DNA of 55,362 bases from Lachnospiraceae bacterium. GTDB taxonomy: Bacteria; Bacillota; Clostridia; Lachnospirales; Lachnospiraceae. Position 1 is the stretch's first letter, and each line of letters starts with the position of its first letter. This document shows, piece after piece, positions 21,408 to 41,490 of the stretch. The DNA is taken from positions 1-55,362 of the forward strand of contig JAFSKG010000045.1 of assembly GCA_017449075.1 (NCBI GenBank), given 5' to 3'. The position numbers and the translations under genes are program-made. The notes under the pieces are model-generated. The model did no database searches and was not told the DNA's origin. It was given only the letters and a program-made list of their open reading frames with translations.

Positions 21408-21691
21408 TACACATCTTCTCTCTTGTCAAATTTAAATTGTAATTCCTTAGGCTCTTCTATGTCTAAATCTTTACCTGACCCAAATAACTCAAAGAAACCT
21501 TTTGGATAGGTTTTCTTATAGTCATCCATAACTTCTAAGTCTATAGAGCATGGGAATCGCTTTTTTAACACTGATTGTTTCAAAAAAATATTAATTGCTG
21601 ACGACAAGCTCATCCCAAGACTTTCATATAAGCTTGTCGCTTCTCGCTTCAGCTTTTCATCTATTCTAAATGTAAAAGTACCGCTATTCAT
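21407..21691 (-). CDS. RelB/DinJ-type antitoxin
   Basis: The 94-residue protein begins with a ribbon-helix-helix DNA-binding motif: F-T-F-R-I-D-E-K-L-K-R-E-A strand and helix, then L-G-M-S-L-S-S-A-I-N-I-F. This is the RelB/DinJ signature. The C-terminal half is acidic and should wrap the toxin. RelB/DinJ proteins usually pair with RelE/YafQ toxins, while here the partner is a PIN-domain toxin. A strong ribosome site and a TTGACA-N17-TACAAT promoter precede it, with ACATAT repeats overlapping the -10 box as a candidate autoregulatory operator. Confidence 0.9.
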   Translation of the reverse strand: MNSGTFTFRIDEKLKREATSLYESLGMSLSSAINIFLKQSVLKKRFPCSIDLEVMDDYKKTYPKGFFELFGSGKDLDIEEPKELQFKFDKREDV

Positions 21692-21868: not shown

Positions 21869-22405
21869 TTATTCTATTACCGAGCACCAGCCATTGCCAT
21901 CTATATTGATTTTGTATCCTGCAATCTCAATTACCGTATTTGCCATCATCTGACCATAGTTATTAAAATAATAAACTTTGCCATCTATATCTTTAAGTGC
22001 AGTAGTCACAAGTGCTAAGTCAGTAGGGTCAAAATAATACCAATACCCGCCTTCTTCTTTCCATCCTCTATGAAATGAACCATCATTATTTTTATAATAT
22101 ACTTTGCCATTTGCAGTTACAGCACCAATAACTCTAAATTGTCGAGTTCGAATATCCTGCATATTTCGTATAAAATCATCATTTAAATCAAAATTGCTAT
22201 TATACTGCTTTTTACTTGAAGAACTATCAGTAACTTCTTCATCAGATGTATCATCTTCATGATATCTATATGTCTCAGATTCAGTTTCTTCCACCCAATA
22301 ATACCAATCCATAATGGGATTGTATTCTAATCTGGCTTTTGCGACAGTTACGGAGCAAAGGCAAAATATAAATACTATAATAAACTTTTTGATACTATCA
22401 TACAT
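21869..22405 (-). CDS. Small secreted protein with choline-binding-type wall repeats
   Basis: The start at 22405 (MYDSIKKF) overlaps the stop of the upstream gene by eight bases; 22417 is an alternative. A hydrophobic signal peptide ends around K-A-R. After an acidic Ser-rich linker come wall-binding repeats of the CW_binding_1 type: G-K-V-Y-Y-K-N-N-D-G-S, G-Y-W-Y-Y-F-D-P and D-G-K-V-Y-Y-F-N-N-Y-G-Q-M. No enzymatic domain is seen, so it may be a surface adaptor. Three other proteins in the window carry similar repeats (43765, 45501 region; 50730 gene). Confidence 0.7.
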   Translation of the reverse strand: MYDSIKKFIIVFIFCLCSVTVAKARLEYNPIMDWYYWVEETESETYRYHEDDTSDEEVTDSSSSKKQYNSNFDLNDDFIRNMQDIRTRQFRVIGAVTANGKVYYKNNDGSFHRGWKEEGGYWYYFDPTDLALVTTALKDIDGKVYYFNNYGQMMANTVIEIAGYKINIDGNGWCSVIE

Positions 22406-22745
22406 CAGCTCGTTCAATAAATCTATTTATAACCTCTTCTTCGTGCTTTTCATTAACATAGAATGCAAATTTATCTTTTGCATTGTTTTCATCAGCTGTA
22501 TCGTGCTGATATACCTTGCCCTCGCTCAACAACTTACTATAAAAATCCAAATTATTATTATTCTTATTAATATATATTCTAATTTCTGACGCCCTAAAAT
22601 ATATAGTTAAAAGCACTCTATCATAATATTTAATAGCGATATATTTTGATTTGGCAGAACTAACATAACTTATACCATCGTTATTTGATATAAGTTCTCT
22701 TAATTTAACTTCAAATTCATTTTGGTGTTCTAATACTTTACCCAT
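22398..22745 (-). CDS. Hypothetical protein, 115 residues
   Basis: I do not recognise this protein. It is hydrophilic, with no signal peptide or cysteines. Alternating strands such as K-Y-I-A-I-K-Y-Y-D-R-V-L-L-T-I-Y-F suggest a small alpha/beta domain. A GGA ribosome site is five to ten bases upstream. It lies 40 bp downstream of the PC4-like gene at the tail of the BREX operon and overlaps the next gene by eight bases, so it may belong to the operon read-through. The upstream gap contains a GTAGGATGAG repeat fragment. Confidence 0.6.
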   Translation of the reverse strand: MGKVLEHQNEFEVKLRELISNNDGISYVSSAKSKYIAIKYYDRVLLTIYFRASEIRIYINKNNNNLDFYSKLLSEGKVYQHDTADENNAKDKFAFYVNEKHEEEVINRFIERADV

Positions 22746-22785: not shown

Positions 22786-23070
22786 TTACGTCTCATCAAA
22801 GATACCATCAACTTCATCGTTTTCTTCTGTTTTATCATCACTATAGACTTCATCAATATTAATACTGTTTAACAATTCTTTTAAATTGATAAGTTCAGTT
22901 TTTGTTAAAGTTATGCCTTTTGACATTTTTATGTGATTGTTATCCCACTTTCTTATGTCAAACTTCTTATCTTGTTTATTCCAAGAAATTATATTTAATT
23001 CCAATTTCCACTCGCCTTTATTTCCAATTTGACCAATTTTTCTAATTATTTTGTATTCTATTTCTTTCAT
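22786..23070 (-). CDS. YdbC-family PC4-like single-stranded DNA-binding protein
   Basis: The 94-residue protein matches the bacterial YdbC branch of the PC4/p15 coactivator family: a strand-rich N-terminal half (W-K-L-E-L-N-I-I-S-W-N then K-F-D-I-R-K-W) and M-S-K-G-I-T-L-T-K-T-E-L-I-N-L-K-E-L-L leading into the C-terminal helix. PC4-like domains dimerise and bind single-stranded DNA. The tail is acidic. It starts nine bases after the cysteine desulfurase stop, so it is part of, or co-expressed with, the BREX-like operon and may handle exposed DNA strands. That role is inferred from position. Confidence 0.8.
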   Translation of the reverse strand: MKEIEYKIIRKIGQIGNKGEWKLELNIISWNKQDKKFDIRKWDNNHIKMSKGITLTKTELINLKELLNSINIDEVYSDDKTEENDEVDGIFDET

Positions 23071-23079
23071 ATACTTGTA

Positions 23080-24264
23080 TCATCTCCTTTGATTGATTTT
23101 TTTTATTATATTATATAATTCTTTTACAAATATATCTATTTCTTTTTTTGTATTATACTTACTTAAAGTAATTCTAATGGCACCATTAATATATTCTTTA
23201 GGACATTTAATTGCCTTTAAAACATGCGACACAACTCGTGATTTTGAATTACAAGCAGATCCACTTGAAATACATATATTATGTAAATTCAATATATTTA
23301 CAACATTCTCTGCTTCTAAACATTTAAATGAAATATTTAAATGACTATAAAAACTATTTTCTATTTTACAATTATACCTGTAATCAAAATCTTTATCACT
23401 TTCCCGTAACCTCTCTAATTCAAAAATCAAATGATTTCTTAGTTTTGTAATATAATTTTCATTTTTGTTTATATTGCCTATATTTTCTTCCAATGCTGTA
23501 GCCATTCCAACTATTCCTGCAACATTTTCAGTTCCAGCACGTAAGCCATACTCTTGACTTCCTCCACTTATTAATGATGCTATCTTTATTCCTTTTCTTT
23601 TATATATGAAGCCAATACCTTTAGGACCATTAAATTTATGAGCTGATGCTGACAATAAATCTATTCCTATTTTTTTTACATTAATATTCAAGTGACCAAT
23701 TGCCTGCACAGCATCAGTATGAAATAATATTTTTTTACTTTTACATATTTTTACAATATTATTTAATGGTTCTAATGTTCCAAGCTCATTATTTATAGTC
23801 ATAATACTACACAATATTGTATTTTTATCAATCAAATTAGATAACTCATTTATATTTATTATGCCATTACTATCATTAGAAACATATCTAACTTCACAAC
23901 CTAATTTTTTTACAATTTCACATGAATTCAATATTGCTTTATGCTCTATTTTAGAGGTTACAATATTATATTTAGCATTTTTATTCTCTGTCAGTTTACT
24001 TAAATATATCCCTTTTATGGCTAAATTATCACTCTCACTTCCACCTGAAGTAAATATTATTTCTTCTGCACTTGCTCCAATTATTTTAGCAATTGCTCTT
24101 CTGCACTCTTCAATTTTACTTCTGTTCTTTTTAGCTAAATCATATAAAGCAGAAGGATTACCATAATCACTATATATGTAAGATTTCATCTCATTTAATG
24201 CGAATGTACTTATTTTTGTTGTAGCCGCATTATCAAAATATATAATTTTTTTATTTCTATTCAT
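23080..24264 (-). CDS. Cysteine desulfurase (NifS/IscS/DndA family) in the BREX-like operon
   Basis: PLP-dependent enzymes of this family take sulfur from L-cysteine as an enzyme persulfide. The 394-residue protein begins I-Y-F-D-N-A-A-T-T, has the PLP lysine Lys210 in S-A-S-A-H-K-F-N-G-P-K-G, and the persulfide cysteine Cys338 in S-S-G-S-A-C-N-S. H-T-D-A-V-Q-A around 182-188 is the cofactor-contact segment. The start codon overlaps the upstream small-protein stop by one base. No iscU or isc regulator lies nearby, while a PAPS-reductase-like protein is in the same operon. The best inference is sulfur supply for that enzyme, as DndA does for DndC. Confidence 0.94.
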   Translation of the reverse strand: MNRNKKIIYFDNAATTKISTFALNEMKSYIYSDYGNPSALYDLAKKNRSKIEECRRAIAKIIGASAEEIIFTSGGSESDNLAIKGIYLSKLTENKNAKYNIVTSKIEHKAILNSCEIVKKLGCEVRYVSNDSNGIININELSNLIDKNTILCSIMTINNELGTLEPLNNIVKICKSKKILFHTDAVQAIGHLNINVKKIGIDLLSASAHKFNGPKGIGFIYKRKGIKIASLISGGSQEYGLRAGTENVAGIVGMATALEENIGNINKNENYITKLRNHLIFELERLRESDKDFDYRYNCKIENSFYSHLNISFKCLEAENVVNILNLHNICISSGSACNSKSRVVSHVLKAIKCPKEYINGAIRITLSKYNTKKEIDIFVKELYNIIKKINQRR

Positions 24265-24467
24265 TAGCTAAATAACTTACACCCATCTTCCTTATATTCT
24301 TCTATTTTATACAACATATCTTCTTCGGTTACTTCCAATTCCTCTGCTAAGCATTTTAAGCAAAGATAATAACTAATTTTTTCCCCAAGCAATTTTTTAT
24401 TTAGCCCAATTTCATCTTTTGATAATTTTTTCTTATTACAATATTTACAATCAATTTGTTTTTTCAT
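24264..24467 (-). CDS. Small two-CxxC protein, putative zinc or Fe-S binding
   Basis: The 67-residue protein has Cys7-x-x-Cys10 and Cys36-x-x-Cys39, a likely single metal site, plus Cys63 near the C-terminus (D-G-C-K-L-F). The region between the Cys pairs is K-L-S-K-D-E-I-G-L-N-K-K-L-L. Similar small proteins are widespread in Clostridia without a known function. It overlaps brxL by 17 bases and the desulfurase by one. It could pass sulfur or metal between the desulfurase and the PAPS-reductase-like protein, but this is only a positional guess. Confidence 0.75.
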   Translation of the reverse strand: MKKQIDCKYCNKKKLSKDEIGLNKKLLGEKISYYLCLKCLAEELEVTEEDMLYKIEEYKEDGCKLFS

Positions 24468-26166
24468 TTATAAGTTCACCACTTTCATAAAAACTTAATC
24501 CTTCTTTATCTTTAAACTTAAAATTATCTTTTTCATATTTTTCTTTAATTTCATCATCATATTCACATAAACTATAATTTGCCATTATTTTATCTTTAAA
24601 TTCTGTATCAATAAAACCATTTTGTTTATTTATTATTCCTCTCATTCTAATTGCTGGTTCCAAGCAATATTTATTAAACATTTCTCTATTAACATATTTT
24701 GAATCCGTAGAATTTGGAAATAACAGTTTTAAAAATGCTGTTGCAACTCTTTTTACTGATTCTGTATCTCTTGTATCGGCATTTGTTGGTACCACAATCA
24801 ATTCATCAACTATTTTCCTGTAATTCGCATCAGATCTCATTTCGTGCATTATACAAGTAAAGTATTCACTATTTAATGCCACACCTTCAACCTTCAAATC
24901 TTCATGCATTCTAGGGATAAGCCAACCTTCAATAAATCCATGAAAACGATCTAATAATGCACTTGACTTGAATGCTTCTGGGAGTTGAATAAACATATTT
25001 TTATTTATATCCCAAACACTTTGATCAATATTACCAAGTATAATTACTCCTGCATCAGCAATGATTGTATGGCCATCAATACCAACTTGCCCCTGCTCCA
25101 TATACCCTTGTAAAGCTTGTCTCATTTCATCAACATTAGTAAAACCTGTATATTGTATTTCATCAAGTGCCACAAAGTCACTATTAATAATATATCCATC
25201 TCGTTTTTTGCTTCTATCATAAAACATTTTTGTTCTTGATAATGTTCCTCCTGAATTAAGATGTCCGTATTTACTTAACGAACCAAATAAATATGATTTT
25301 CCTGTTCCTTTTGGAGCAAGTTCAACAATATTCAATCTCTTTTCTACAAATGTCAAAAGTCTTTTTATTACCGTTAGTTTGTTTATATCGTTTTCATAAC
25401 CTTCGGGATTATAATCAATTGCACTAATTATCACATCAATCCACTCATTTATAGTAAATTCTTTTCTATATTCTTTAAAATCTTCTAAATCAACACTATA
25501 TTTATTAAATAACTTAAAATCTTCTAATGTTATTGCACCTTTAATTTTAGGTTTAGCATTCTCATCTGGTTGTCGATAACCAAGCGTAGCCATCCCCCAA
25601 ACTTCTTTACCAGATATAAACGAATCTTTAATATTATTCCATACATGCTCATTAATATTTGTTTCATTCTCAGATATTCCGTATTCTGGCATTGAAAACC
25701 TATTTTTATTTGTCAAGACATCTAAATCAACTCCAACACGTGTAAGAATTTTTGCAAGTTCTGCTGACTTCATTATTTTATCTTTAATAACAAAAAATCC
25801 TTCTTTATTCGGAATGTGACTTTTAATATATTCTTTTATTCCATCACTATCAAAATCATCTCCATCTCTAAACTTTTCAAGAAGCCAGTCTCTTAAAAAT
25901 GATGGGATGTTGTAGGACTTAAAAAAACTAGTTTTCTTCAAATTTTTGTGCACCGTCATTTCAGTACCAAAAACTTTCAATAGTTTATCTTCTCTCTCTT
26001 TTCTTTTTAATTTGTCTTCTTTATATTGTTTATCTTGATTGTCTTCTGCATTATCGACATTATCAGAAGAAATGTCCTCAGTATTTAAATCATCTTTAGT
26101 ATCATTATTAGATACAACATCAATATCTTCATCAAATAAACCATCGTACTCTTTATCATTATTCAT
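24451..26166 (-). CDS. brxL: BrxL-like AAA+ protein lacking a Lon domain
   Basis: BrxL is the AAA+ component of BREX systems, normally with a C-terminal Lon-protease-like domain. The 571-residue protein has an acidic low-complexity N-terminus (1-65) and a conserved middle with R-V-G-V-D-L-D-V-L-T and L-G-Y-R-Q-P-D-E. Walker A is A-P-K-G-T-G-K-S (284-291) and Walker B F-V-A-L-D-E (331-336). L-L-D-R-F-H-G-F-I-E-G-W follows, and later R-D-T-E-S-V-K-R-V-A. It ends soon after the helical lid, so the usual Lon-like domain is absent. It follows pglZ by 12 bases with a clear ribosome site. Confidence 0.88.
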   Translation of the reverse strand: MNNDKEYDGLFDEDIDVVSNNDTKDDLNTEDISSDNVDNAEDNQDKQYKEDKLKRKEREDKLLKVFGTEMTVHKNLKKTSFFKSYNIPSFLRDWLLEKFRDGDDFDSDGIKEYIKSHIPNKEGFFVIKDKIMKSAELAKILTRVGVDLDVLTNKNRFSMPEYGISENETNINEHVWNNIKDSFISGKEVWGMATLGYRQPDENAKPKIKGAITLEDFKLFNKYSVDLEDFKEYRKEFTINEWIDVIISAIDYNPEGYENDINKLTVIKRLLTFVEKRLNIVELAPKGTGKSYLFGSLSKYGHLNSGGTLSRTKMFYDRSKKRDGYIINSDFVALDEIQYTGFTNVDEMRQALQGYMEQGQVGIDGHTIIADAGVIILGNIDQSVWDINKNMFIQLPEAFKSSALLDRFHGFIEGWLIPRMHEDLKVEGVALNSEYFTCIMHEMRSDANYRKIVDELIVVPTNADTRDTESVKRVATAFLKLLFPNSTDSKYVNREMFNKYCLEPAIRMRGIINKQNGFIDTEFKDKIMANYSLCEYDDEIKEKYEKDNFKFKDKEGLSFYESGELINEKTN

Positions 26167-26178
26167 ATAATTTCTCCT

Positions 26179-28533
26179 TTAAAAATCTTCATCTTCATTT
26201 TTTGTAATTCCAGCTCTTGTAAATATGATTTGAATACTATCAATTATTTTTGATTTTTCATACACTTGTAAATCAAAAGTTCCTGTCTCACTATATTTAA
26301 ACTCATTAAAATGTAAAATGTATTTATAAAAGTCATTTGTATTTTCTATACTCACAGTATTAGGTTCATAAGCACTTTTATTTGTTATTAGTTTAAAACT
26401 AGAGTCATTAATTTTATTATCTGCACATACTACTATGTCAAATTTTTTATTATTTCTTATCTTAACAGTCCTTTCCGTGGTCAATTTTATTTTAGCATCA
26501 TCTTTACTTAATGATAGTTTAATGATAGGAACTAGGGTTTCTTCAAGTGTTGCTCCACCATGAACTTCATTTCCAATAAGTCTACCACCTTTAAATCTGT
26601 CATAATTGGAAAGTACCGCATATTCTATCCCATCTTGCTCGACTCTACATATTGCTTTAATATCTTTTAGCGATTCCTCATATTTTGTATATCTTCCACC
26701 TGATTCCCCAATAAATTCCCCCTCATAAGTTTTTTTATTATCAAATATTTTAGGAATTCTTGTTGCTCCATGGTCTGCAACTATATACACGTTTTTATAT
26801 TTGCCACTGCTTAAATAATTTTTCTTAATTTGATTTATTGATTTTTTGATAGAATCTAACTGTTTTATTATGTAATATGGTTTTTTTGTTTTTGTATCCA
26901 TACTATCTTGTGATTCTTCATGAACAATTTTATCAATATCACTATACTTAGTATAATTATTTGCAAAATCTAAAAAATCTTTATTATATTTAGTTTCAGT
27001 TGGCAAACTAGCTCTTCCTATATATGCCTTGCTATATATTTGTTTATCCTCACTCAAACACAAAATATAATTAATAAATTCAATGCCCAATGCATCATAA
27101 AATACAATGATATCTCTTTCTTTATCGATGTTTAAAGATAAAAGGATAGTTTTTCTCGGGTCTATATTTCTAATCATGTCATATTTCATTGAGATATTAT
27201 CTACCATGGAAATAAAACCTTCATTTGTTTTATTTATAACTTTCTGCTCCTTATATAACTTTAAATACTTATTTATAAAGTCTTTCTCAATCCCACTAAC
27301 AATATATTCTTTATCAATAGTTAAGTAATAATACAATTCATAATAATTATTCTTAAGTACATTTAGCAAATTCTTATCAATTTCATCAATGCAATTTTCG
27401 CAAATACAATCTATTAATTTTTCTTTTTCAAGAATTGTCAAATCTGACAAATAGTAAATTAAATTTTTGTCTTTATCTATCAAACTATTATAATAGTTGA
27501 AAGATATGCTATCTAAATATTCAGTATCAACTTTCTTAAATATTTTATATCTCTCATTATAGTATTTTGCAAATGAATCCTCTTTAATGTCTATATTTTT
27601 TATATAACAATATATGTTGTCAACCACAGAAGTTGTGCAGAATACATCTTTTAAAGCCAAGTCTAAATATGTATTTTTATTTTGTAAATTAAAATATTCT
27701 TTGACTATAATCAAAAACAAATAGCTTTGTACACCATCATACTCTAACAACAAATTAATGATGTTATCAGTATTTATATTTTCTATAATATCTTTTTTAA
27801 ATATGTCTAATTCATTTTTTGAATAACTTTTGATTATGCTTGTTAATATTTCTTCTTGATTAAATCGTTTGTCTACTTTTATAGCAAACTTATCATAAAA
27901 CTCTTTATATATATCTTGTTTATATATCTCATATTTAATTAATGAAAAATCATCATTAAGTGTATCAATATTATTTGACACACATACACAGTCATTATCT
28001 ATAACTTCAAATTCGCCAATATTATTTAAACCGGCTATTTCCACAAAAGATGTATTTAAAATCTTTTGTTTAGAAAAAAATAATCTATTTTCTATATATC
28101 TGTCATTAACAAAAACAATATTGTTAATTACCCTTTGATTTTTTCTTATCAAATATTCTAATTGTGTTTCAAAATCATAAACTACGAATATTATTTTCCC
28201 ATTAATTTGATACACCCTATCTTCTGCCAAATCTGTTATTATCCTATTTAATGCTTCTTTACCTTGTAATTTAAAATGAGTGGAAAAACCATATATAATA
28301 CTATTATTATGAATATTTTGTATATAATTAACAAAACTATAAACATTTAATAAATAGTCTTCATTACATTTGTCAGATAGGTTGCTGATATTAATGTTTA
28401 TGTTTTTATAGTAATCAATAATTTCTTTTATGTGCTTTTTATCATTAAAATTCATTATGACAATCTTTTTAACATTGTCATTAAATACATTAGATATAAA
28501 TTCTCTCACCTTTTCAAAATTTAATTTTTCCAT
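26179..28533 (-). CDS. pglZ: PglZ-domain protein (BREX alkaline-phosphatase-superfamily component)
   Basis: PglZ proteins are the hallmark BREX component; the domain has an alkaline-phosphatase-like metal site. In this 784-residue protein the first 460 residues are helical with no known motif. The PglZ domain then shows I-I-V-F-Y-D-A-L-G-I-E-F (Asp480, nucleophile region), V-Y-I-V-A-D-H-G-A-T-R (metal ligands at 587-588) and E-V-H-G-G-A-T-L-E-E-T-L-V-P (His658). A beta-rich C-terminal domain follows. The start codon abuts the brxC stop with no gap, so translation is coupled. Confidence 0.93.
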   Translation of the reverse strand: MEKLNFEKVREFISNVFNDNVKKIVIMNFNDKKHIKEIIDYYKNININISNLSDKCNEDYLLNVYSFVNYIQNIHNNSIIYGFSTHFKLQGKEALNRIITDLAEDRVYQINGKIIFVVYDFETQLEYLIRKNQRVINNIVFVNDRYIENRLFFSKQKILNTSFVEIAGLNNIGEFEVIDNDCVCVSNNIDTLNDDFSLIKYEIYKQDIYKEFYDKFAIKVDKRFNQEEILTSIIKSYSKNELDIFKKDIIENINTDNIINLLLEYDGVQSYLFLIIVKEYFNLQNKNTYLDLALKDVFCTTSVVDNIYCYIKNIDIKEDSFAKYYNERYKIFKKVDTEYLDSISFNYYNSLIDKDKNLIYYLSDLTILEKEKLIDCICENCIDEIDKNLLNVLKNNYYELYYYLTIDKEYIVSGIEKDFINKYLKLYKEQKVINKTNEGFISMVDNISMKYDMIRNIDPRKTILLSLNIDKERDIIVFYDALGIEFINYILCLSEDKQIYSKAYIGRASLPTETKYNKDFLDFANNYTKYSDIDKIVHEESQDSMDTKTKKPYYIIKQLDSIKKSINQIKKNYLSSGKYKNVYIVADHGATRIPKIFDNKKTYEGEFIGESGGRYTKYEESLKDIKAICRVEQDGIEYAVLSNYDRFKGGRLIGNEVHGGATLEETLVPIIKLSLSKDDAKIKLTTERTVKIRNNKKFDIVVCADNKINDSSFKLITNKSAYEPNTVSIENTNDFYKYILHFNEFKYSETGTFDLQVYEKSKIIDSIQIIFTRAGITKNEDEDF

Positions 28534-31500
28534 TTATTTATTATGCTGCATTATACTAATACCTACTTCCATTTTATCTTGTATAAGCTCCTTTAAATAT
28601 TTTTTTGCATCAGCATCTGACATTTTATCTATTTTTTCATAAACTTTCTTATAATCTTTTTCTATATACTTTGTTTCTGCCATTTGTCTTATTTTATTTA
28701 ATGTTGAATGATAATCAGAATACCAAGTTGCTACATTAGGATTGTTATTATATAAGTAAGCACGAACTTCATCAACATTGTCAAGTATTAAAGAATATTC
28801 ACTTAAAAACTTATTCTTAAAAATTTGATTTATATAATCATCATCGTTAAGTTTAAGCAAAAATTCTTCTTTTTCAATATATTTTATATATTTTTCAATT
28901 TCTTCGTCACTTGCATCTCCATTGCCGTTAATAATATCAAGTGCCTTTTTAGCAATATCTTTATCATCATCTTTTGCAAATATTAAAATAGGTGTCTTTT
29001 TGCTAATTTCAAATGTTTTAGGGTTTTCATATTTAGTAATTTCTTTAAACTTACTTATTAGTTGTAGCTTCTTTTTATTAGCTTTATACTCATTGATTCT
29101 ATTAATTGTATTTTGACTCCAGTCTGATTTATTCATTGCAAAGCCTTTCTGCAACAATGCAAATATCTCTTTTTTATCATCACATGAAAAATCAGACAAT
29201 TTGCTATCAAATATTTTATTAAATATCTCTATGGCATTTTCATTTGTTCTATATTTCTCATAAGCACCCTTTGCTTTACAAAACTTTTCATAAAATGGTT
29301 TAATTTGTGGCATTTTTAATTCTCTATTTTTGTATAAAGAATATAACTCATCTAAAAATTCATAAAGATTTTGGTTTTCATTTTTTATTTGGTCTTTAAT
29401 TAAATCAAAAGGTATCGCCAAATTACTAATTTCTTTTAGCCAAGAATCTGTAGTACCTTTCAATGAATTATTTCTTAAAGACAATAATTCATTGCTTTCA
29501 TCAATTATTTTTAATTCTATAAGGGTAAGTTTTATCTGTTCGTCTGCTGTTTCTTTAAGCCAAAGCCAGTTTCCGTCCTCAGTAAATTTGTTCTTTAACA
29601 ATTCAAGGTAAAGCCCTTCGTCTTGTATTTTTTTAGACAAATCAATAATCTTTGTTTCATTTTCTTTTATATATTCTTGTATGCCATTGACAACATTCTC
29701 TTTTTCAAATAGTTTAATAAACTCATCTACTAATTTTTCATCTCTTACAAGCTTTGCACCTATTTCAATACCAATAGAATTTTCGGATTTTTTATCATTA
29801 TTGTTTAACAATGACATCAAATCTTTAATTATTTCTACTAATTCTTCTTTTTTATTTAACTTTTCGAATGTCTTAGAGTATTCAACATAGCATAATGGAT
29901 AGTTATATTCCCTCATTTTATTTCTAAGGCCATCTCTTAAATCACCAATATTATTGCATTTTGATAAGTTAAATGTCCTTTTTACAACTTCGAATAGCTT
30001 TTTCAATTCATCAGGTTCTGCAACAATTTTAGCATTTTCATAATTTCCTCTTTCTTGTATAACATCAATAAAGCTTGTAGCAAATGCGCCAGCATTTTCA
30101 TCGCATAATTCAAAATATTGATTGGCGCTGTCTGTAAATTTATATTCATTTGATTTAACATATTCTTTTAATAAAAATCCTATATAAAAACCGTATGCCC
30201 CCTCATTTCTAAATCCAAATGGTTTGTCATATAAAAATCTATAAATTTCAGACAATGTGACTTCCTTACTTCCATCACTTAACTTAGCAATAATAAATTC
30301 GTCAATCTTGATTTTTATTTTTGATACAATAAAATCAGGTTTATTAATAAAGTATCTTTCATCATCTTTTACTTTTGCAATGTCACCAACAGCTTGTAGC
30401 GATCCTCTAAAATCACCATTAATGCCTTGAACTATAGATGCTTGTTTTATATTTTTATGTATATCACCACCTTGGAACTTATCAATTTCTTGTATTTTTT
30501 CAAGCCCCAATGGATACATATTTACGACTAATTCATTTATACTTTTTAATAAATTTTTAAATGAATTGATTTTTTGCATTTCAATACCATTGTCTTCACT
30601 ATAATAATATAAAATAAAATCGCCATTCTCAATTTTATTTATCCATGTTTTAAGATTATTGGTATAATTTGCTTTATATATTCGGCTTTGATCTTTGTCT
30701 TTATTTAACTGATATACATGTCTAGTCCAGTTATCAATAAATTTGCCTTTTTCTTCTTCAGTTGCAAAATTTTTTGTAGCATCAATGATTATAGTTGATT
30801 TATAATTTTCTAATAATTTTTCTATTGAATTATCATTTAATAATTTTTTATGCTCGTCTTCATTATATGCCAATACTAGCAAAACATTATCTTTTCCATC
30901 ATTTGATTGCAACTGTTGTTTAAATTTACTTACATCAGTTATTATTAGATTGTATTTAGAATTTAAAAATGAAGATGCATCAAATTTAAAGTTTTTATCC
31001 TCATCTTGTATTATAGATAAAACTTCATTTGTATATTTAAATTTGTTTATACTTTTTTCTTTTTCTTTTTCAATTTCTGTTTCACTTCCTGTTCCAATCA
31101 TAGCACTATATCTATCTACTCCATTTACAGGAATTTTGTTTATTATATTGTCTTTAATAAGTTTATTGATTGATATTTCTACTTCGTCTTCTACATTTGT
31201 TCCAACAAAAGCGTTTTTAATATTTTTCATATTTGCTGTATAATAGTTTTCTTGTTGCCCCATTTTATTTTGTATTACATTTAATAAAAGAATGGTTTTT
31301 AATATTCTTCTTTGATATTTATCAATTTTATCATTTTTGTTATCTGGATTTACACTATCATAATAACTTAATATGTTTTTTGTATCATCATCCAATTTAT
31401 CTTTTCCTGTTGTGTAAAAATAATCCCATATTAAATCAACTGTCAAAAATGGATTTTCATTATCCATAGGACCAAAGTTTTCGATAAACCACACAAATCC

Positions 31501-32724
31501 TTTTTTATTTTCTTTATCAGAACTTGCTTTCATAAAATCAAGCATAGATCTTTGATTTGAACCAAAATTTTCACTTATAACTCTTATCACAAGTATTGCA
31601 TAAGGATGAAGTGGCAAAACCTTTCTATATTCTTCCTCAGATATTTTTACATGTTGTGATAATTCATAGCATAGATTTTTAACACGATTTAACAAAGATT
31701 CTGAATATGCTTCCCACTCTTTTTTATATTTATTATCTTCTACAACATTAATTGCCGATGCCATTAATTTTATTCCCTGTTCTTCTGGCAACTGTATTAT
31801 ACAATCTGTATTAAATCTATCAGATATTTTCTTTCCCGTATCATTATCTGATACAATTTGAGTTGGCGATTTATGTGTTATGACCATAATAGCAAAATTT
31901 ATACGAGATATGAGTTCTCCAATACTTTGAAATCCTGACAGTCTCGTTGAGTTATTTATAACATATTCTGTAAATTCATCCCAAATAAATAAAATTGAAA
32001 TTTTATTATCTTCAATAACTTTTGCTAGCCAATTTTTCAACAAATCTACATCAATATAAATAACATTTAATCCTTTATCTTTTGCTATTCTTAATATATT
32101 TGATATAATTATTTCTACTGATTTGTCTTCATCATTTTTTAATTTTTCAAGTAATTCTTTTACCTTATCTCCACCGAATAATTTTTTATATTCTTTTTCT
32201 ATATAACTATCAAATGAATTTGCAAATATCTCATCTTTTTCAAACTTATTTATTATCAAATCTTTTAAACTATTCTCATATTTTAAACCTTTTTCTTTTA
32301 ATGCTTTTGCAACACTTTCTTGTATTCCATAACATAGTGCACTATCACTATCAATGTTCGAAGTTCCTGTCCTTGTAATAACTATAACATTCTTATCTCT
32401 TAAAAATTTAATTTTATCTTTTATATTATTATCTATTAAATTTTTATATTTATCATAATAAGTATTTAGTATATTCTCGTCAACTTCAAGCAACCTCTTT
32501 AGTGTCCAGCTAGCATATGATTTTCCTGTTCCATAACTTCCAGACACCCAAATAGATTTTGAGCGATTTACAAAACTTTCATAAACTCTTTTAATCATAT
32601 CTATAAACGACTTATGTGGATAAAATTCAATAATCTCATCATCGCTATGCATTGCATCCGGTTTAAAAACTGGGTCAAAATTTTTGTTTACTTTTAAATA
32701 CTGATTATAATTCACATCTGACAT
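28534..32724 (-). CDS. brxC: BrxC/PglY-like large ATPase of the BREX system
   Basis: The 1396-residue protein is the large P-loop ATPase of the cluster. Walker A is G-S-Y-G-T-G-K-S (62-69), preceded by I-W-V-S. Walker B is I-L-F-I-W-D-E-F (DE at 249-250), and a sensor-type V-I-T-H-K-S-P-T follows. The remaining thousand residues are mainly helical and highly charged, as in BrxC/PglY. BrxC is thought to be an AAA+ machine that acts with PglZ on DNA. It starts one base after the brxP stop. It is the longest gene in the window and strongly A+T-rich. Confidence 0.92.
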   Translation of the reverse strand: MSDVNYNQYLKVNKNFDPVFKPDAMHSDDEIIEFYPHKSFIDMIKRVYESFVNRSKSIWVSGSYGTGKSYASWTLKRLLEVDENILNTYYDKYKNLIDNNIKDKIKFLRDKNVIVITRTGTSNIDSDSALCYGIQESVAKALKEKGLKYENSLKDLIINKFEKDEIFANSFDSYIEKEYKKLFGGDKVKELLEKLKNDEDKSVEIIISNILRIAKDKGLNVIYIDVDLLKNWLAKVIEDNKISILFIWDEFTEYVINNSTRLSGFQSIGELISRINFAIMVITHKSPTQIVSDNDTGKKISDRFNTDCIIQLPEEQGIKLMASAINVVEDNKYKKEWEAYSESLLNRVKNLCYELSQHVKISEEEYRKVLPLHPYAILVIRVISENFGSNQRSMLDFMKASSDKENKKGFVWFIENFGPMDNENPFLTVDLIWDYFYTTGKDKLDDDTKNILSYYDSVNPDNKNDKIDKYQRRILKTILLLNVIQNKMGQQENYYTANMKNIKNAFVGTNVEDEVEISINKLIKDNIINKIPVNGVDRYSAMIGTGSETEIEKEKEKSINKFKYTNEVLSIIQDEDKNFKFDASSFLNSKYNLIITDVSKFKQQLQSNDGKDNVLLVLAYNEDEHKKLLNDNSIEKLLENYKSTIIIDATKNFATEEEKGKFIDNWTRHVYQLNKDKDQSRIYKANYTNNLKTWINKIENGDFILYYYSEDNGIEMQKINSFKNLLKSINELVVNMYPLGLEKIQEIDKFQGGDIHKNIKQASIVQGINGDFRGSLQAVGDIAKVKDDERYFINKPDFIVSKIKIKIDEFIIAKLSDGSKEVTLSEIYRFLYDKPFGFRNEGAYGFYIGFLLKEYVKSNEYKFTDSANQYFELCDENAGAFATSFIDVIQERGNYENAKIVAEPDELKKLFEVVKRTFNLSKCNNIGDLRDGLRNKMREYNYPLCYVEYSKTFEKLNKKEELVEIIKDLMSLLNNNDKKSENSIGIEIGAKLVRDEKLVDEFIKLFEKENVVNGIQEYIKENETKIIDLSKKIQDEGLYLELLKNKFTEDGNWLWLKETADEQIKLTLIELKIIDESNELLSLRNNSLKGTTDSWLKEISNLAIPFDLIKDQIKNENQNLYEFLDELYSLYKNRELKMPQIKPFYEKFCKAKGAYEKYRTNENAIEIFNKIFDSKLSDFSCDDKKEIFALLQKGFAMNKSDWSQNTINRINEYKANKKKLQLISKFKEITKYENPKTFEISKKTPILIFAKDDDKDIAKKALDIINGNGDASDEEIEKYIKYIEKEEFLLKLNDDDYINQIFKNKFLSEYSLILDNVDEVRAYLYNNNPNVATWYSDYHSTLNKIRQMAETKYIEKDYKKVYEKIDKMSDADAKKYLKELIQDKMEVGISIMQHNK

Positions 32725-32725
32725 A

Positions 32726-35131
32726 CTATTCCCCCATAATCATATCTAATACATTGTTAGACCTCATCTCTTTATTTAAATTAATATTATCCAAATCAAA
32801 AGTAAATGAGCAATTAATATAATCTGGATACTTAATAGACAAACCATTTATTATAGCTTTCATATCTTCTTTTTCTACTCCAAATATTTTATAAGGACTA
32901 ATTCCTTCTTGCTCTAACTCTTCATCGTAAAGTCTTGATAGAGTAAACTCACTAAATAAATTACTACATGCATTTGTTTTCTCATCATAATCACCACAAT
33001 GCTCAGCATATTTATATAGCGAAAATAAAATTACTTCTGGGATGGGATTCTCCCATTTGCAACGGACAATACTAATTTCATTATCTTTTTCATCATCACA
33101 TATAACTGTTGCTAAACCTAAATTTGAGAACGGCAATTTGAAAATTCTTATCAAGTCTCTTACCGCATCTTTAGGCACTCTATTATCTTTTGATGTATCA
33201 TCTGTAACATAAATTATTTCATTTGTAATACTATCTTTTGTAGTCAAAGAATTGTACTTATAATTATTTATAAACCATTTCACTGGTTCTGAATTATATA
33301 CACAATTAATATATAATATTCCCCATAAAAGTAAATCTGTTAAATCATAATCCTTAAATGCCTTATAGAGTTTCAATTCTATATTTTTTACATTTACAAC
33401 TTGACAGTCACGTAAAAATTTTATAAAGTTAGATTTTTGCTTAATTCCCAACTCTGTATTATTTAAAAATGTATCTAAATTATCATACTTTTTCAAATCT
33501 TCAAACCATTTTAATAATGGCCCATGCGTGTTATAACGATTTAACGATTTAATATTTGACACTTTTCCATCTCCTTTTACTTCTTTTAATGAATTATATA
33601 TTAAACATCCACTTTGAATATCATCATTACATTTCATACAATGAATGCACAATTTTGAATCTATTATTATTCTATTATCAACACTTTCTATTGCCCCATA
33701 TTCACAATTAGATGCACACACTCCACAACTTATACACATTGCAGTTTTGCGAAAAATGTTCTTCAATTTTTTATTATATGCTTTAAACTCTAAATCCAAT
33801 TTATTAGCATATTTAATAGAATAATTGTTATCGTTTTTTACAATAGTCAACTCTAATTTAAATTTATTATCCCAAGATGTTATCATTGCTATATTATTTT
33901 GTTCGTATTCTATTATTCCAAATGTTTTAATCCATTCTCCTAAATCATTTTTTGAATTAGTTATTTCAATAATTGTATCTTTTTTAACATCTTTTTCAAC
34001 ATAATTTGGTTTTAATTTTATATCTCTTGAACTCCTTCTCAACTTCCAACCTTTATGTTTAATAAAATCTATCAATTTACCATCATTGTATTTTTCACTA
34101 TACTGATTTTTAATTTTATCCAACAATTCACTAACATTATTTTTATAAGATTTAAGTCGTACATATTCATGATGTTCTGTAGAAAAAGGGCATAAAAGAC
34201 AACCAGCTCTTGAATTTCCTATTTTATACGAATTGTTAAAATTCAAATTAAATTTATAAATATATAAAAAGATTTCAGCAGAACTAAACACTAATATTGG
34301 ATAACAATTATATTGTCCAATATGTTTTTCTTCATATGAAACATATTTATATTTACTTCGTTTCTCGCTCTCATCAGATCTTGCTCCAATAAAGGCAAAC
34401 CCATTAAAATGTCTTTTATTAGCAATTTTTCTCAATAAATTTATTTGTGGTGCCGACTTATGTACAGAGCAACACCACCTAATATCATTTGCTGGCGGTC
34501 CGAAAATGTCCCAGCTCTCACTTGGTTTTAAATGCGAACTTGCTCTATAAAACTCAATTCCTAATTCTTTGCATTCTTTTTCTACTTTATCAACTACAAC
34601 ATAGGTGTCAGGGAACTCCATACCAGTATCACCAAATAATACTTTAAATTCATTATATGGCAGAGCTCTTTTTACGATATCAAGACATACTATAGAATCT
34701 TTTCCACCACTAAAAGCAACATAAAATACATCTACTTTATTTTTATATTTAATATATGTGTTATAAACTTTCTTTATTGTTTCATTAATAAATGGTTCTA
34801 AAATGTCATCATTTTTTTTAACCATTAGATTAATATCAATAAATTTTAGTTTATCTTTTATTTCCTTTCCTTCTTCTGTAATTATTAGTGTAGGAGCTTC
34901 ATATATATTCCCACCTTTGGTACTAGCTACATGTACTCCTCTATAATAGTAATTTGTCATTTCAGCAATCATATAAGGCTTTTCATCATTTTTTTCATAA
35001 TCAAAATAATTGTCAAAACCCAGCAAATCAAGTTCCTTATAATAAACAGGTCTTGGCTCTTTACTCATTTTAGAATGTTCTGGTGTAAGCAAGATACCAC
35101 CAGTTTCTTTATCAAATATATAACTATACAT
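32726..35131 (-). CDS. brxP: BrxP-like PAPS-reductase-family protein with 2x[4Fe-4S] ferredoxin domain
   Basis: This 801-residue protein takes the place of a DNA methyltransferase in BREX type 4. The N-terminal domain (about 1-100) contains K-E-P-R-P-V-Y-Y-K-E-L-D-L-L-G and Y-Y-Y-R-G-V-H-V-A. The PP-loop ATP pyrophosphatase domain has S-G-G-K-D-S at 141-146 and G-D-T-G-M-E-F-P at 167-174. It also has Cys220-Cys221 and C-L-L-C at 311-314, which may hold an Fe-S cluster as in DndC. A ferredoxin-like segment has Cys466/469/472/476 and Cys495/498/501/509. A C-terminal helical region is unassigned. It resembles the DndC family that inserts sulfur into the DNA backbone; reaction here is inferred. 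Confidence 0.9.
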   Translation of the reverse strand: MYSYIFDKETGGILLTPEHSKMSKEPRPVYYKELDLLGFDNYFDYEKNDEKPYMIAEMTNYYYRGVHVASTKGGNIYEAPTLIITEEGKEIKDKLKFIDINLMVKKNDDILEPFINETIKKVYNTYIKYKNKVDVFYVAFSGGKDSIVCLDIVKRALPYNEFKVLFGDTGMEFPDTYVVVDKVEKECKELGIEFYRASSHLKPSESWDIFGPPANDIRWCCSVHKSAPQINLLRKIANKRHFNGFAFIGARSDESEKRSKYKYVSYEEKHIGQYNCYPILVFSSAEIFLYIYKFNLNFNNSYKIGNSRAGCLLCPFSTEHHEYVRLKSYKNNVSELLDKIKNQYSEKYNDGKLIDFIKHKGWKLRRSSRDIKLKPNYVEKDVKKDTIIEITNSKNDLGEWIKTFGIIEYEQNNIAMITSWDNKFKLELTIVKNDNNYSIKYANKLDLEFKAYNKKLKNIFRKTAMCISCGVCASNCEYGAIESVDNRIIIDSKLCIHCMKCNDDIQSGCLIYNSLKEVKGDGKVSNIKSLNRYNTHGPLLKWFEDLKKYDNLDTFLNNTELGIKQKSNFIKFLRDCQVVNVKNIELKLYKAFKDYDLTDLLLWGILYINCVYNSEPVKWFINNYKYNSLTTKDSITNEIIYVTDDTSKDNRVPKDAVRDLIRIFKLPFSNLGLATVICDDEKDNEISIVRCKWENPIPEVILFSLYKYAEHCGDYDEKTNACSNLFSEFTLSRLYDEELEQEGISPYKIFGVEKEDMKAIINGLSIKYPDYINCSFTFDLDNINLNKEMRSNNVLDMIMGE

Positions 35132-37609
35132 TTATGACTTTATACCTTTGAATAAAATTTTTAAAGCATCATTTATATTATTTACTTTAATATTTTTTAT
35201 CTCGTCATATTCATATTCTTTATCATTATTATCATAATTAATATTACTTGGTCTCTTTTTCACAACTTTCCGAGCAAAATTATCAATACTATTATTTACA
35301 CTATTATCTTCACCGCACTCATCATTATCATCATAATCATTATCAATGTCATAGTTATCATTTTCATCATCAGCTTTATTGATTAATATATCTATACATC
35401 TTTCAATTGCATAGTTATGAAAATTTTCATCATCTAAATACTGGGTTTCATTTGGGAAATGCTTTTTAATAATTTTCTTTAAATCAACAGGTTTCCAACC
35501 TTCGTCTTCTTTTTCTTTTAACATTTCTTTAATTTTTTCACAATCTTCAGGTTTAATAGGGAAAGAATCTATATAAAAAAAACTTTTTAAATCATCTGGA
35601 GTATTTGTACCATTATCATCATAAATTACTTCCTTGCTTCTTATATCGCGATTACTATGATAATATCTACTCTTTGCTACACTTTTTATATCTTCACTAT
35701 GTAAATAACTCAATTTATTATAAATATCTTTCAATTGAACACAAGAACCATCAAGCTTAAGAAAATTTGCTATTATTCCATCAATAAAACTATATAAGGC
35801 ATTTCTTCCATACCAATATAATCTTGATACATCTTCATCGTTACTATTAAACAATATTGATATATATATATTAGAATCACCTTTACTCATTTTATTTAAA
35901 GAATAATCGTCTGTGTCAAGTAACTCATTATATATACAACTTATAAGTTTTTCATTTGATATATCTAGTTCTATATTGCATTGTTTAGAAAAATACTCTA
36001 TCGTCATTAAATATTCGTTAGTATTTTTTATTGATGGTAATATGTTATCGTTTTCTTTTATATTATTGATAAAATTCTCTATCTTGTTGTTTACCTCTTC
36101 AGTAATTAAACACTCTTTTACATAAATCTTGTCATCAATTTCTACAAAATTATTTCTTAAAAAATCATAGAAATCTTCAGTATTTTCATCACTAATTATA
36201 TCATCATTAAAATTTTCTTTATATTTTAATTTAAATGTATTTAATTCTAAATTATCATCTAACCTAAATCCATTTTTAAAGCATTCTATTAAAACACATT
36301 TGACATTATCAAAATGTCCATCATATTCTGACATTTCTAAGTCTTTCTTATTTATATAGTAATATTCTTTATATAAACCCTTTATATAACTTTCAAATTC
36401 TTCATTGTCTATATTTACTTCTATTTCATCATAACCTTTCTCATAATATATTATTAGTTTTTTTATTACATTTTTTTTATTTATTATTTCTATAAATCGC
36501 TCTACTGTATCTTTATCATTATTATATTTAATTTCTTCAGTTCCTGTATATCCATCAATTCTATATTTAAACTCTGTATTATATTCGGTTCTTATATTAT
36601 AAAACACATCACCATCGTCAAACACTAACTCAATTATTGGTTCTATTAAGTCATTATATCTTGATGAGATATTTTTAAAATTACTTTTTCTTTTTTCATT
36701 GCTTTCATAACTATACAGCTCAATGCAATTATTGCCTTCCTCATATTCATCGCAATGATTAACCTCATTCAAGCGCAATTTATCTTCTCCAGTATTCAGA
36801 TAGTATATTTCTATATATTCCTTTTCCATTCCCAATAATTCTATAATGCGTAGAATTCTTGATAATATATTTTCTGCACTCAATTTATTATATAAATATA
36901 AATCTTCGCTTAAAAAAGTATACTCATCGTTTATATCTTTATCATCTTGTGTAAGATTTTGCAGTGCTACTGCTTTTGAATTAAACAGATCTCTTTTAGC
37001 ACCAAAAAATTTTTTATCTCTATATTGCAAAAGTTGATATTTATAATTTTCTTGTTTCAATAAAAATTCAATTATTGATATATATAGCGACCTCCAACTA
37101 TAATTAAAAGCCAAATCAATGCCATTGATTTTTGCTCTTATTGGTTTTGACCATGGAATATCAAAATTTGCTTTATCCCAATTTATTTTATTTTCTTTTT
37201 CATTCAACTGCATTTTTTTATTCTCAACATATTTGTATAATAAATCAATGCTTTTATTTAATTCATCTTTGTTATAACCTATAGAAGAATAATCATATTT
37301 ATAAAACTCTCTTAAACGTTTTATAAACTCTTCAGTATCATCAAATAATAGATCTTGCTTGTATTCTATAATTTTGCTTGACTTAAATCCATCTCTATCC
37401 AGTACCCTGCTTTGTAATATCATTCCATTTACATTTCTATACTTGCCATCAAATTCCCTATTTGGATATTTTTGTCTACCATACAAATTTAATTTTTTTG
37501 ATAATATATCTAAATTATGAAATTTTTGATTTTTATCACTGACAAAACTGTTTACAACATAAGTTTCAACTAAAGCTGTAGCTTCTAAATCATCAAATTT
37601 ATACTTCAC
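35132..37609 (-). CDS. Unrecognised 825-residue protein, second gene of the BREX-like operon
   Basis: I do not recognise the family. I favour the GTG at 37609 (GGAGAG just upstream, 11-base overlap with the first gene); a longer TTG start at 37648 is possible. The N-terminus (F-D-D-L-E-A-T-A-L-V-E-T-Y-V, then K-Y-R-N-V-N-G-M-I-L-Q) resembles a small domain found before HNH and other restriction-type domains. A K-P-I-R-A-K-I-N-G segment with W-R-S-L-Y follows. The middle has wing-like segments, and the tail is Asp/Asn-rich and disordered. No nuclease, helicase or methylase motif is visible. Its end directly abuts brxP. A recognition or adaptor role is a guess from position. Confidence 0.75.
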   Translation of the reverse strand: MKYKFDDLEATALVETYVVNSFVSDKNQKFHNLDILSKKLNLYGRQKYPNREFDGKYRNVNGMILQSRVLDRDGFKSSKIIEYKQDLLFDDTEEFIKRLREFYKYDYSSIGYNKDELNKSIDLLYKYVENKKMQLNEKENKINWDKANFDIPWSKPIRAKINGIDLAFNYSWRSLYISIIEFLLKQENYKYQLLQYRDKKFFGAKRDLFNSKAVALQNLTQDDKDINDEYTFLSEDLYLYNKLSAENILSRILRIIELLGMEKEYIEIYYLNTGEDKLRLNEVNHCDEYEEGNNCIELYSYESNEKRKSNFKNISSRYNDLIEPIIELVFDDGDVFYNIRTEYNTEFKYRIDGYTGTEEIKYNNDKDTVERFIEIINKKNVIKKLIIYYEKGYDEIEVNIDNEEFESYIKGLYKEYYYINKKDLEMSEYDGHFDNVKCVLIECFKNGFRLDDNLELNTFKLKYKENFNDDIISDENTEDFYDFLRNNFVEIDDKIYVKECLITEEVNNKIENFINNIKENDNILPSIKNTNEYLMTIEYFSKQCNIELDISNEKLISCIYNELLDTDDYSLNKMSKGDSNIYISILFNSNDEDVSRLYWYGRNALYSFIDGIIANFLKLDGSCVQLKDIYNKLSYLHSEDIKSVAKSRYYHSNRDIRSKEVIYDDNGTNTPDDLKSFFYIDSFPIKPEDCEKIKEMLKEKEDEGWKPVDLKKIIKKHFPNETQYLDDENFHNYAIERCIDILINKADDENDNYDIDNDYDDNDECGEDNSVNNSIDNFARKVVKKRPSNINYDNNDKEYEYDEIKNIKVNNINDALKILFKGIKS

Positions 37610-37871
37610 TTTTCTCTCCACTATGACTAAATAATACCCTTTCAGCAACTTCCAATAACAATCTTTCTTCTGGAAACACTGGTCTCACGTCAGTACCAAT
37701 TCTTTCACATTCACTTCCGCAAATACTGCATTTTTCCTCATACACTGGTGTATTGCAAATTTTACAATAATAGACATCACTACTAAATAATTCAGCCCTT
37801 CCTTCGCAAATTGGGCATTTTGAGGTTTCGCATATGTGATTATCACAGTTTTTACAAATATACTTAATCAT
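37599..37871 (-). CDS. Cys-rich multi-zinc-ribbon protein, first gene of the BREX-like operon
   Basis: The 90-residue protein has ten cysteines, mostly in CxxC-type knuckles: Cys6/9, Cys14, Cys19/22, Cys36/39, Cys48/51 and Cys55. The C-terminal part has G-T-D-V-R-P-V-F-P-E-E-R-L-L-L-E. That motif resembles the N-terminal part of many PAPS-reductase-family proteins, which often carry such zinc ribbons fused in front; here it is a separate gene. It could bind metal or nucleic acid and may be a detached domain of the BrxP machinery. It is the promoter-proximal gene, 44 bp from a palindromic candidate operator. Confidence 0.8.
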   Translation of the reverse strand: MIKYICKNCDNHICETSKCPICEGRAELFSSDVYYCKICNTPVYEEKCSICGSECERIGTDVRPVFPEERLLLEVAERVLFSHSGEKSEV

Positions 37872-39028: not shown

Positions 39029-39034
39029 AATATG

Positions 39035-40198: not shown

Positions 40199-40223
40199 AT
40201 TAGTTGTCTTTTAATATTTTCTT

Positions 40224-40402: not shown

Positions 40403-40440
40403 GGAAAAGCAACTGCAATCAAATGATTATGCTTTCTTAA

Positions 40441-40475: not shown

Positions 40476-40505
40476 TCACACAGGTTTATTTGTTTTGTTA
40501 TATAC

Positions 40506-41480: not shown

Positions 41481-41490
41481 GGCACACCTC

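What the first reader, a model, noticed from the sequence alone, without database searches (positions are those of the whole stretch)
22786..37871. BREX type 4-like operon that carries its own sulfur supply
The core order brxP, brxC, pglZ, brxL is that of BREX type 4, with no PglX methyltransferase. The same tightly packed operon adds a complete cysteine desulfurase with both catalytic residues, two Cys-rich small proteins and a PC4-like ssDNA-binding protein. BrxP has a PP-loop, DndC-like cysteines and eight ferredoxin cysteines. This set looks like a fusion of Dnd-type sulfur chemistry with BREX effectors, so the self-mark may be a phosphorothioate or another sulfur change in DNA.
Basis: partly seen in the sequence, partly recalled or inferred. 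Interest (0 to 1): 0.88.

Follow-up and report, generated by a model that had tools for sequence, protein, structure and literature searches.

The report
Sulfur-marking BREX type 4 defence operon
This is a bacterial anti-phage operon of a known kind (BREX type 4), thought to mark its own DNA with sulfur; its sulfur-supply gene is a common part of such operons, while the fast-changing large gene at its front belongs to a family that looks like an overlooked regular part of many of them.

Summary
A tightly packed nine-gene operon on the minus strand (37871 to 22786) has the type 4 core brxP-brxC-pglZ-brxL, no methyltransferase, a cysteine desulfurase with its catalytic residues, two small Cys-rich proteins and a PC4 protein. 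The headline interpretation is right but known: phosphorothioation by BREX type 4 is in print, and a 2026 survey reports the desulfurase in 255 of 457 type 4 taxa. In my survey the desulfurase lies after brxL in 42 of 61 usable loci and the 67-aa zinc-finger gene in 57 of 61. PC4 (1 of 95 other loci) and the 90-aa zinc ribbon (0 of 95) are peculiar to this operon. Its slot, 5' of brxP, holds one protein family in 82 of 90 usable loci, in 16 phyla; these loci lean towards BrxPs like the window's, and in an evenly drawn phylum sample 8 of 15 genomes with a near-full-length BrxP have it. The library scans I ran found no model for its core; it looks like tandem repeats, and its N-terminal part is exchanged between close relatives. 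I propose, unproven, that it recognises DNA.

The parts
37599..37871 (-). orfA, 90 aa, free-standing zinc ribbon, first gene of the operon
   Evidence: phmmer 2.1e-19 to the N-terminal zinc ribbon of a PAPS-reductase-like protein in L020, 2.7e-17 in L017; NCBIfam PRK13795 N-terminus 1.6e-4, far below its whole-protein cut-off; 0 of 95 type 4 loci have it
35132..37648 (-). orfB, 838 aa from TTG (825 aa if GTG 37609, preceded by GGAGAG, is the start): divergent, C-terminally short member of the protein family found 5' of brxP in many type 4 loci
   Evidence: hhalign of orfB 448-756 with family core columns 3-260: probability 97.5, E 5.6e-12; profile A3 finds it in the whole genome at 1.7e-11; no Pfam, PADLOC, NCBIfam, PDB or PHROG match; start codon read
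32726..35131 (-). BrxP, 801 aa: PP-loop PAPS-reductase domain, 8-Cys ferredoxin part, C-terminal region (DUF4007-like in one distant relative)
   Evidence: PADLOC PDLC02510 1.6e-218; PF01507 4.8e-26; 12 invariant Cys in A1; DUF4007 3.8e-6, just below cut-off, at 657-760 of L009's BrxP
28534..32724 (-). BrxC ATPase, 1396 aa
   Evidence: PADLOC BrxC 1.2e-131, also SspC 2.2e-23
26179..28533 (-). PglZ of BREX-4 type, 784 aa
   Evidence: NCBIfam NF033445 259.9 bits against cut-off 140
24451..26166 (-). BrxL, 571 aa
   Evidence: TIGR02688 388.6 bits against 329.3; PF13337 and PF20442 over cut-off
24264..24467 (-). 67-aa zinc-finger-like protein, CxxC...CxxC plus C-terminal GCxLF
   Evidence: C7, C10, C36, C63, G62, F66 at 100% and C39 at 99% of 69 rows; 57 of 61 usable loci
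23080..24264 (-). cysteine desulfurase, 394 aa, K210 and C338
   Evidence: SspA 8.8e-126, DndA 6e-123; conserved residues; 42 of 61 usable loci
22786..23070 (-). PC4-like ssDNA-binding protein, 94 aa
   Evidence: PF02229 5.5e-8, over cut-off; only PF02229 match in the 76%-complete genome; one relative among the 95 loci, in L057
38042..38356 (+). divergent Xre-type regulator beside the operon start; possible regulator, not shown
   Evidence: HTH_19 and HTH_3 over cut-off

Best explanation
This is a BREX type 4 phosphorothioation defence operon with its own sulfur feed. Proposed working: the desulfurase takes sulfur from cysteine onto C338; the 67-aa protein, with its invariant C-terminal cysteine, docks or relays it; BrxP uses its PP-loop to activate a DNA phosphate and places the sulfur, with iron-sulfur clusters held by the eight cysteines; BrxC powers and assembles the complex; the protein of the slot before brxP (orfB here) brings it to its DNA sites; PglZ with BrxL and BrxC then blocks unmarked invading DNA. 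Shown here: gene content, order, packing, conserved residues and the survey. From print: phosphorothioation by type 4 and the desulfurase link. Inferred: the enzymatic steps in this operon, the relay role of the 67-aa protein, the recognition role of orfB, any role of orfA and PC4, and that this host's DNA carries sulfur.
For: Family models and order. Conserved catalytic-type and cluster-type residues. Desulfurase after brxL in 42 of 61 and never without the 67-aa gene. The genome has two other desulfurase relatives (42% and 28% identical), so the operon copy looks dedicated. Literature: PMC11931770 passages, PMC12839542 sections 34 and 39 read whole.
Against: No measurement of sulfur in this organism's DNA. 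The window's BrxP is a long branch (1.19 changes per column), and orfB lacks the best-conserved C-terminal part of its family, so this copy may be altered. 19 of 61 usable loci have no linked desulfurase in the count (one of them, L089, has it and was miscounted because its brxL reads broken; one counted as having it, L059, has it on the opposite strand). 7 of 15 genomes of an even sample have a near-full-length BrxP without a slot protein, so that protein cannot be needed in all type 4 systems.
Confidence: 0.85

Rival explanations
1. The desulfurase and the Cys-rich proteins serve iron-sulfur cluster assembly on BrxP (eight ferredoxin cysteines) rather than being the direct sulfur donor for DNA.
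For: BrxP has eight invariant cluster-type cysteines; the same 12 cysteines occur in 11 PAPS-reductase-like proteins with no clear BREX gene in the 1.5 kb of flank held on each side (a weak BrxC match of 3.9e-4 in one, L026); NifS is the desulfurase's best NCBIfam model, below its cut-off.
Against: The PADLOC SspA and DndA models match about as strongly as NifS; DndA and SspA are described as sulfur donors for DNA phosphorothioation (starts of abstracts seen in the listing). The two roles do not exclude each other.
Confidence: 0.3
2. The slot protein (orfB family) is an invader sensor or regulator that controls the BREX effectors, not the site-recognition part of the marking machine.
For: Fast change and exchanged N-terminal modules also fit a sensor in an arms race; DUF4007 on BrxP is already proposed as the DNA-binding counterpart of SspB and BrxA (PMC12839542); 7 of 15 evenly drawn genomes with a near-full-length BrxP do without a slot protein.
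Against: Close coupling to brxP rather than to pglZ or brxL; DNA-binding-type domains and no known effector or enzyme domain over cut-off in 16 members scanned.
Confidence: 0.4
3. orfA and PC4 are passengers without a part in the system.
For: orfA has no match in 95 loci and PC4 one.
Against: Both lie inside the packed operon; the PC4 relative in L057 also follows the 67-aa gene, about 310 nt on.
Confidence: 0.5

Closest known systems
BREX type 4 (brxPCZL), as in PMC12839542 section 34 and PMC11931770
   Same: Same four core genes, no methyltransferase, desulfurase and small zinc-finger protein
   Different: Here there is also a free-standing zinc ribbon, a PC4 gene, and a short and divergent slot protein before brxP; the slot-protein family is not mentioned in the sections and passages of PMC12839542 that I saw
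SspABCD-SspE
   Same: Desulfurase (SspA), PAPS-reductase (SspD) and BrxC-like ATPase (SspC) have counterparts here
   Different: No SspE model matched the nine proteins; effectors are PglZ and BrxL instead
DndABCDE-FGH
   Same: Desulfurase of DndA type, PP-loop enzyme
   Different: No DndD, DndE or DndFGH model matched the nine proteins; DndC match weak (1.2e-5, residues 112-261)
PRK13795-type PAPS-reductase and ferredoxin proteins
   Same: Same 12 cysteines as BrxP in 11 of 11; their N-terminal zinc ribbon resembles orfA
   Different: Zinc ribbon fused there, separate gene here; they match BrxP only within residues 22-546 (L017-L022 and L024-L028). The name comes from the NCBIfam matches of BrxP and orfA; these proteins themselves were not scanned

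Membership tests
BREX type 4 | BrxP, BrxC, PglZ (BREX-4 type) and BrxL in one operon | tested here: met
   75 of 93 de-duplicated survey loci also hold all four; by the coordinates, 14 of the other 18 are cut by contig ends and 4 (L039, L041, L068, L083) are not
BREX type 4 | no adenine methyltransferase in the operon | tested here: met
   None matched among the nine proteins; the MTase at 38438-39028 lies outside the operon and matches generic methyltransferase models
BREX type 4 | DUF4007 part on or beside BrxP | tested here: inconclusive
   PADLOC BrxP covers residues 1-798, but Pfam DUF4007 is not matched in the window protein; it is matched, just below cut-off, in 1 of 3 other BrxPs scanned (L009)
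BREX type 4 | DNA phosphorothioation and phage protection | not testable with these tools
   Needs mass spectrometry and phage assays
Dnd system | DndD, DndE and DndFGH partners | tested here: not met
   No such model matched the nine proteins; the rest of the genome was not searched for them
Dnd system | DndC-specific cysteine dyad in the PAPS-reductase | not tested
   No DndC was aligned here; the 2026 survey says type 4 BrxP lacks the dyad
slot-protein family before brxP (for orfB) | position directly 5' of brxP, same strand | tested here: met
   orfB stop 35132, brxP start 35131
slot-protein family before brxP (for orfB) | about 470-residue C-terminal core | tested here: inconclusive
   First 258 core columns matched with probability 97.5; the last about 215, with the FPxxGxxWNxFLLESY stretch, not matched; default hmmsearch with the full core finds nothing

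The most novel reading that the evidence does not exclude
The large gene before brxP is an unrecognised regular component of one large clade of BREX type 4: a modular DNA-recognition subunit, built of tandem (perhaps winged-helix) repeats with exchangeable N-terminal modules, that sets where phosphorothioates are placed or which DNA is attacked, much as HsdS does in type I restriction; and the 67-aa protein is a dedicated persulfide relay between any desulfurase and BrxP.
Probability: 0.3. Interest if true: 0.65.

Novelty: new member of a known kind. Interest (0 to 1): 0.4.

Why it matters
How BREX type 4 chooses its DNA sites, with no methyltransferase to carry a target-recognition domain, is as far as I know open. 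A family that sits in front of brxP throughout one large clade, and whose front part is exchanged while the rest is kept, is a concrete candidate that a domain swap can test. The survey also shows the 67-aa zinc-finger gene to be more constant than the desulfurase (57 against 42 of 61), which points to it as part of the core sulfur path.

Tried and rejected
Rejected: that desulfurase linkage is a chance feature of this locus (42 of 61). Rejected: that BrxP's cysteines identify it as DndC-like (shared with 11 of 11 relatives outside the survey). Rejected: that orfB is unrelated filler. Against it stood these: phmmer with orfB alone found nothing in the 95 loci, a search with orfB found nothing in the other 397 genomes, the full-core profile with default filters missed it, and profiles of its regions 1-130 and 140-300 gave no hit. 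For it: blastp, profiles of its later regions against 500 shuffles (region 430-620: orfB 2.1e-13, best shuffle 0.0039; the columns had been aligned with orfB present, though its row was left out), the genome search and hhalign. No similarity of the family core to BrxP, BrxC, PglZ or BrxL profiles (probability 4.5 or less). No solved structure convincingly resembles orfB, the core or the 67-aa protein (none for orfB; best E 0.029 and 0.32 for the others). The single-linkage grouping of upstream proteins was not used for counts, because it swept in an ordinary sigma factor (L038). Plasmid searches with orfB and with a family member (L107) found nothing.

Limits: the 80 named loci are the best 80 of at least 304 confirmed relatives, so they lean towards BrxPs near the window's. 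The profile used for the 82-of-90 count was built from 75 of the upstream proteins themselves. The genome search is the fairer test, though four of its seven strong hits were also rows of its profile.
Full report
What is there. The window is contig 40 of a draft genome of 1.64 Mb, 76% complete. On its minus strand nine genes run from 37871 to 22786: a 90-aa zinc ribbon (orfA), an 838-aa protein (orfB), BrxP, BrxC, PglZ, BrxL, a 67-aa Cys-rich protein, a cysteine desulfurase and a PC4-like protein. From orfB to PC4 neighbouring genes overlap or are at most 12 nt apart. orfA and orfB overlap by 50 nt if orfB starts at TTG 37648; a GTG at 37609 behind GGAGAG looks a better start and would shorten orfB to 825 aa. 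The four core proteins match BREX models strongly, BrxP and PglZ those of type 4. No terminator-like site lies inside the operon on its own strand; promoter-like sites are too many in this AT-rich DNA to single any out (165 found, 133.3 with sd 9.4 in shuffles).

Sulfur chemistry. The desulfurase keeps K210 and C338. BrxP keeps the PP-loop SGGKDS and twelve cysteines that are invariant in 13 of 13 aligned BrxPs. All twelve are also cysteine in 11 of 11 PAPS-reductase-like proteins that match BrxP only within residues 22-546. The 12th row, L023, is a BrxP broken across frames and is left out. The 11 have no BREX gene match in the 1.5 kb of flank held on each side, save a weak BrxC match (3.9e-4) in L026. 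So the cysteines mark the wider enzyme family and not DndC. The genome holds two further desulfurase relatives, 42% and 28% identical.

Known or not. PMC11931770 (passages) states that phosphorothioates are made by dnd, ssp and brxPCZL genes. PMC12839542 (sections 34 and 39 read whole) treats type 4 as a phosphorothioation-based BREX, reports a desulfurase in 255 of 457 taxa, and notes a small zinc-finger protein often with it. PMC12707154 (passages) also speaks of BREX phosphorothioate systems (brxPCZL). The primary report (Yuan et al. 2024) is not held; from recall only, its abstract says that the activity was validated genetically in Bacteroides salyersiae.

Survey. BrxP was searched in 398 genomes of the phylum: 27 have a match at E 1e-30 or better, in 15 of them near-full-length (579 or more of 801 residues). 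Fifteen regions of up to 20 kb were taken, and 80 further loci came from named genomes: 95 loci, two of them the same contig seen twice (L101 as L032, L114 as L034). By phmmer with the window's proteins, 91 of 95 have BrxC, 78 BrxL, 77 PglZ, 70 the 67-aa protein, 49 the desulfurase, 1 PC4, and none orfA or orfB. Among 61 de-duplicated loci with BrxP, BrxL and at least 1,700 nt after brxL, 42 have the desulfurase, 57 the 67-aa gene, 42 both and none the desulfurase alone. Two blemishes: L089 is counted as lacking both because its brxL reads broken (one search shows both downstream), and L059's desulfurase lies on the opposite strand. On the BrxP tree the desulfurase needs at least 10 gains or losses (quick tree; presence list made by hand).

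The 67-aa protein. C7, C10, C36, C63, G62 and F66 are kept in all of 69 rows and C39 in 99%. GC.LF or GC.IF lies at the end of 65 of 68, and the 15 loci without a desulfurase that I printed all keep the GC. An invariant fifth cysteine near the C-terminus, kept whether or not a desulfurase is linked, suggests a sulfur relay or docking role; this is inference. Pfam shows only weak DUF2197 and NirdL-like HTH matches, below cut-off in the window's copy; the published survey likens it to HTH regulators.

The slot before brxP. In most loci a large same-strand gene ends within a few bases of brxP. A profile of the C-terminal 470 residues of 75 of them finds a member in 85 of the 95 loci. Counted by position, 82 of 90 de-duplicated loci with at least 600 nt before brxP have it 5' of brxP on the same strand. 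The gap is at most 136 nt in all but three: L105, where the gene is split; L035 (720 nt, with a 238-aa ORF between); and L054, which has a second copy in between. At E below 1e-20 the named loci with a member span 16 phyla by their record titles. The eight without it (L036-L041, L043, L044) have BrxPs 31-34% identical to the window's, and seven of them form one branch with SH-aLRT 99. Since the profile was made from these same proteins, a second test was run with profile A3 on 398 whole genomes. It gave seven matches with E below 1e-50, all 5' of a brxP on the same strand: six within 50 nt, G173's 720 nt away. Three of the seven (G011, G173, G265) were not in the profile; in G265 the contig ends inside the brxP start.

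Against a universal role: of the 15 genomes in that even sample with a near-full-length BrxP, 8 have a slot-family match 5' of it (6 strong, and the window and G279 weak, 1.7e-11 and 5.8e-7) and 7 have none (G050, G211, G212, G237, G252, G300, G308). The slot protein is thus regular in one large clade, not in all of type 4. A type 4 operon on a Methanosphaera plasmid (BrxP 30% identical) has no such gene annotated either. Other weak matches are not beside a brxP: G003, G321, G395 and a second place in G173. G321's and G395's carry a sigma-70 region 4 domain over the cut-off and lie beside helicase genes; G003's is below the cut-off. So a wider superfamily exists.

What the slot protein looks like. 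Seventeen upstream proteins were scanned against Pfam (one, L038, is a plain sigma factor and not a member). Over the cut-off are HARE-HTH in two, an integrase SAM-like domain in one and sigma-70 region 4 in one; HARE-HTH is below the cut-off in a third; none covers the core. PADLOC (the first ten; only sigma-part matches to MzaA, in L034 and L038) and NCBIfam (seven members; only weak recombinase matches in L046) have no model for it. The core profile matches itself out of register by about 130 columns (170-444 with 40-308, probability 95), so it holds repeats, perhaps three; that these are winged helices is inference. Before the core lie 4 to 892 residues. Among 24 pairs with BrxPs at least 70% identical and both N-terminal parts at least 60 aa, all 24 cores but only 15 N-terminal parts still match; median bit-score ratios are 0.80 for BrxP, 0.61 for the core and 0.18 for the N-terminal part. 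L085 and L092, for example, have BrxPs 81% and cores 74% identical and no N-terminal match. That is the pattern of an exchangeable recognition or sensing module.

orfB in the window. It occupies this slot and matches the first 258 columns of the core (probability 97.5, E 5.6e-12), but ends in a low-complexity tail where relatives have their best-conserved part. BrxP here is also on a long branch. This operon is thus an outlying member. orfA resembles the zinc ribbon that opens other PAPS-reductase-like proteins; a free-standing version serving BrxP is possible. PC4 has a single relative in the survey, in L057 about 310 nt after the 67-aa gene, where no desulfurase was found.

Verdict. The gene before brxP is the point worth following. 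I found no mention of it in what I saw of PMC12839542 (passages; sections 34 and 39 whole; part 1 of 2 of section 35). Searches for BREX type 4 terms listed no paper that, by title or abstract start, deals with it; the key preprint and the supplements were out of reach.

Noticed in passing
window 21006-21691: RelB-like antitoxin and PIN-domain toxin pair just beyond the operon.
   Followed up: no
window 38438-41928: Generic methyltransferase, HNH_4 endonuclease, AAA/nSTAND-like ATPase and DUF4869 protein in a row beyond the operon; possibly another defence cluster.
   Followed up: no
window 22398-22745: 115-aa ORF starting 40 nt after the PC4 gene on the same strand, no Pfam match; may be a tenth gene.
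   Followed up: no
L054 4173-9968: Two slot-family proteins in tandem before brxP.
   Followed up: no
L138 (G395) 6490-10452 and L139 (G321) 7531-11001: Large proteins with sigma-70 region 4, distantly like the slot-protein core, next to helicase genes (in L138 also PLD-like and AAA proteins); maybe an unlabelled defence system.
   Followed up: partly
L143, Methanosphaera plasmid pNP174: Type 4 operon with a distant BrxP on an archaeal plasmid, with an HTH and an ImmA/IrrE gene before brxP and a DUF262 gene after brxL; no slot protein or desulfurase annotated in the stretch.
   Followed up: partly
phage records MT835511.1 16015-18291 and MT835963.1 1359-3734: BrxP relatives (39% and 29%) in records labelled as phage from human faeces.
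   Followed up: no
L036, L037, L038: In loci of the distant clade about 670-700 nt separate brxP and brxC, room for a further gene that the main clade lacks (coordinates).
   Followed up: no
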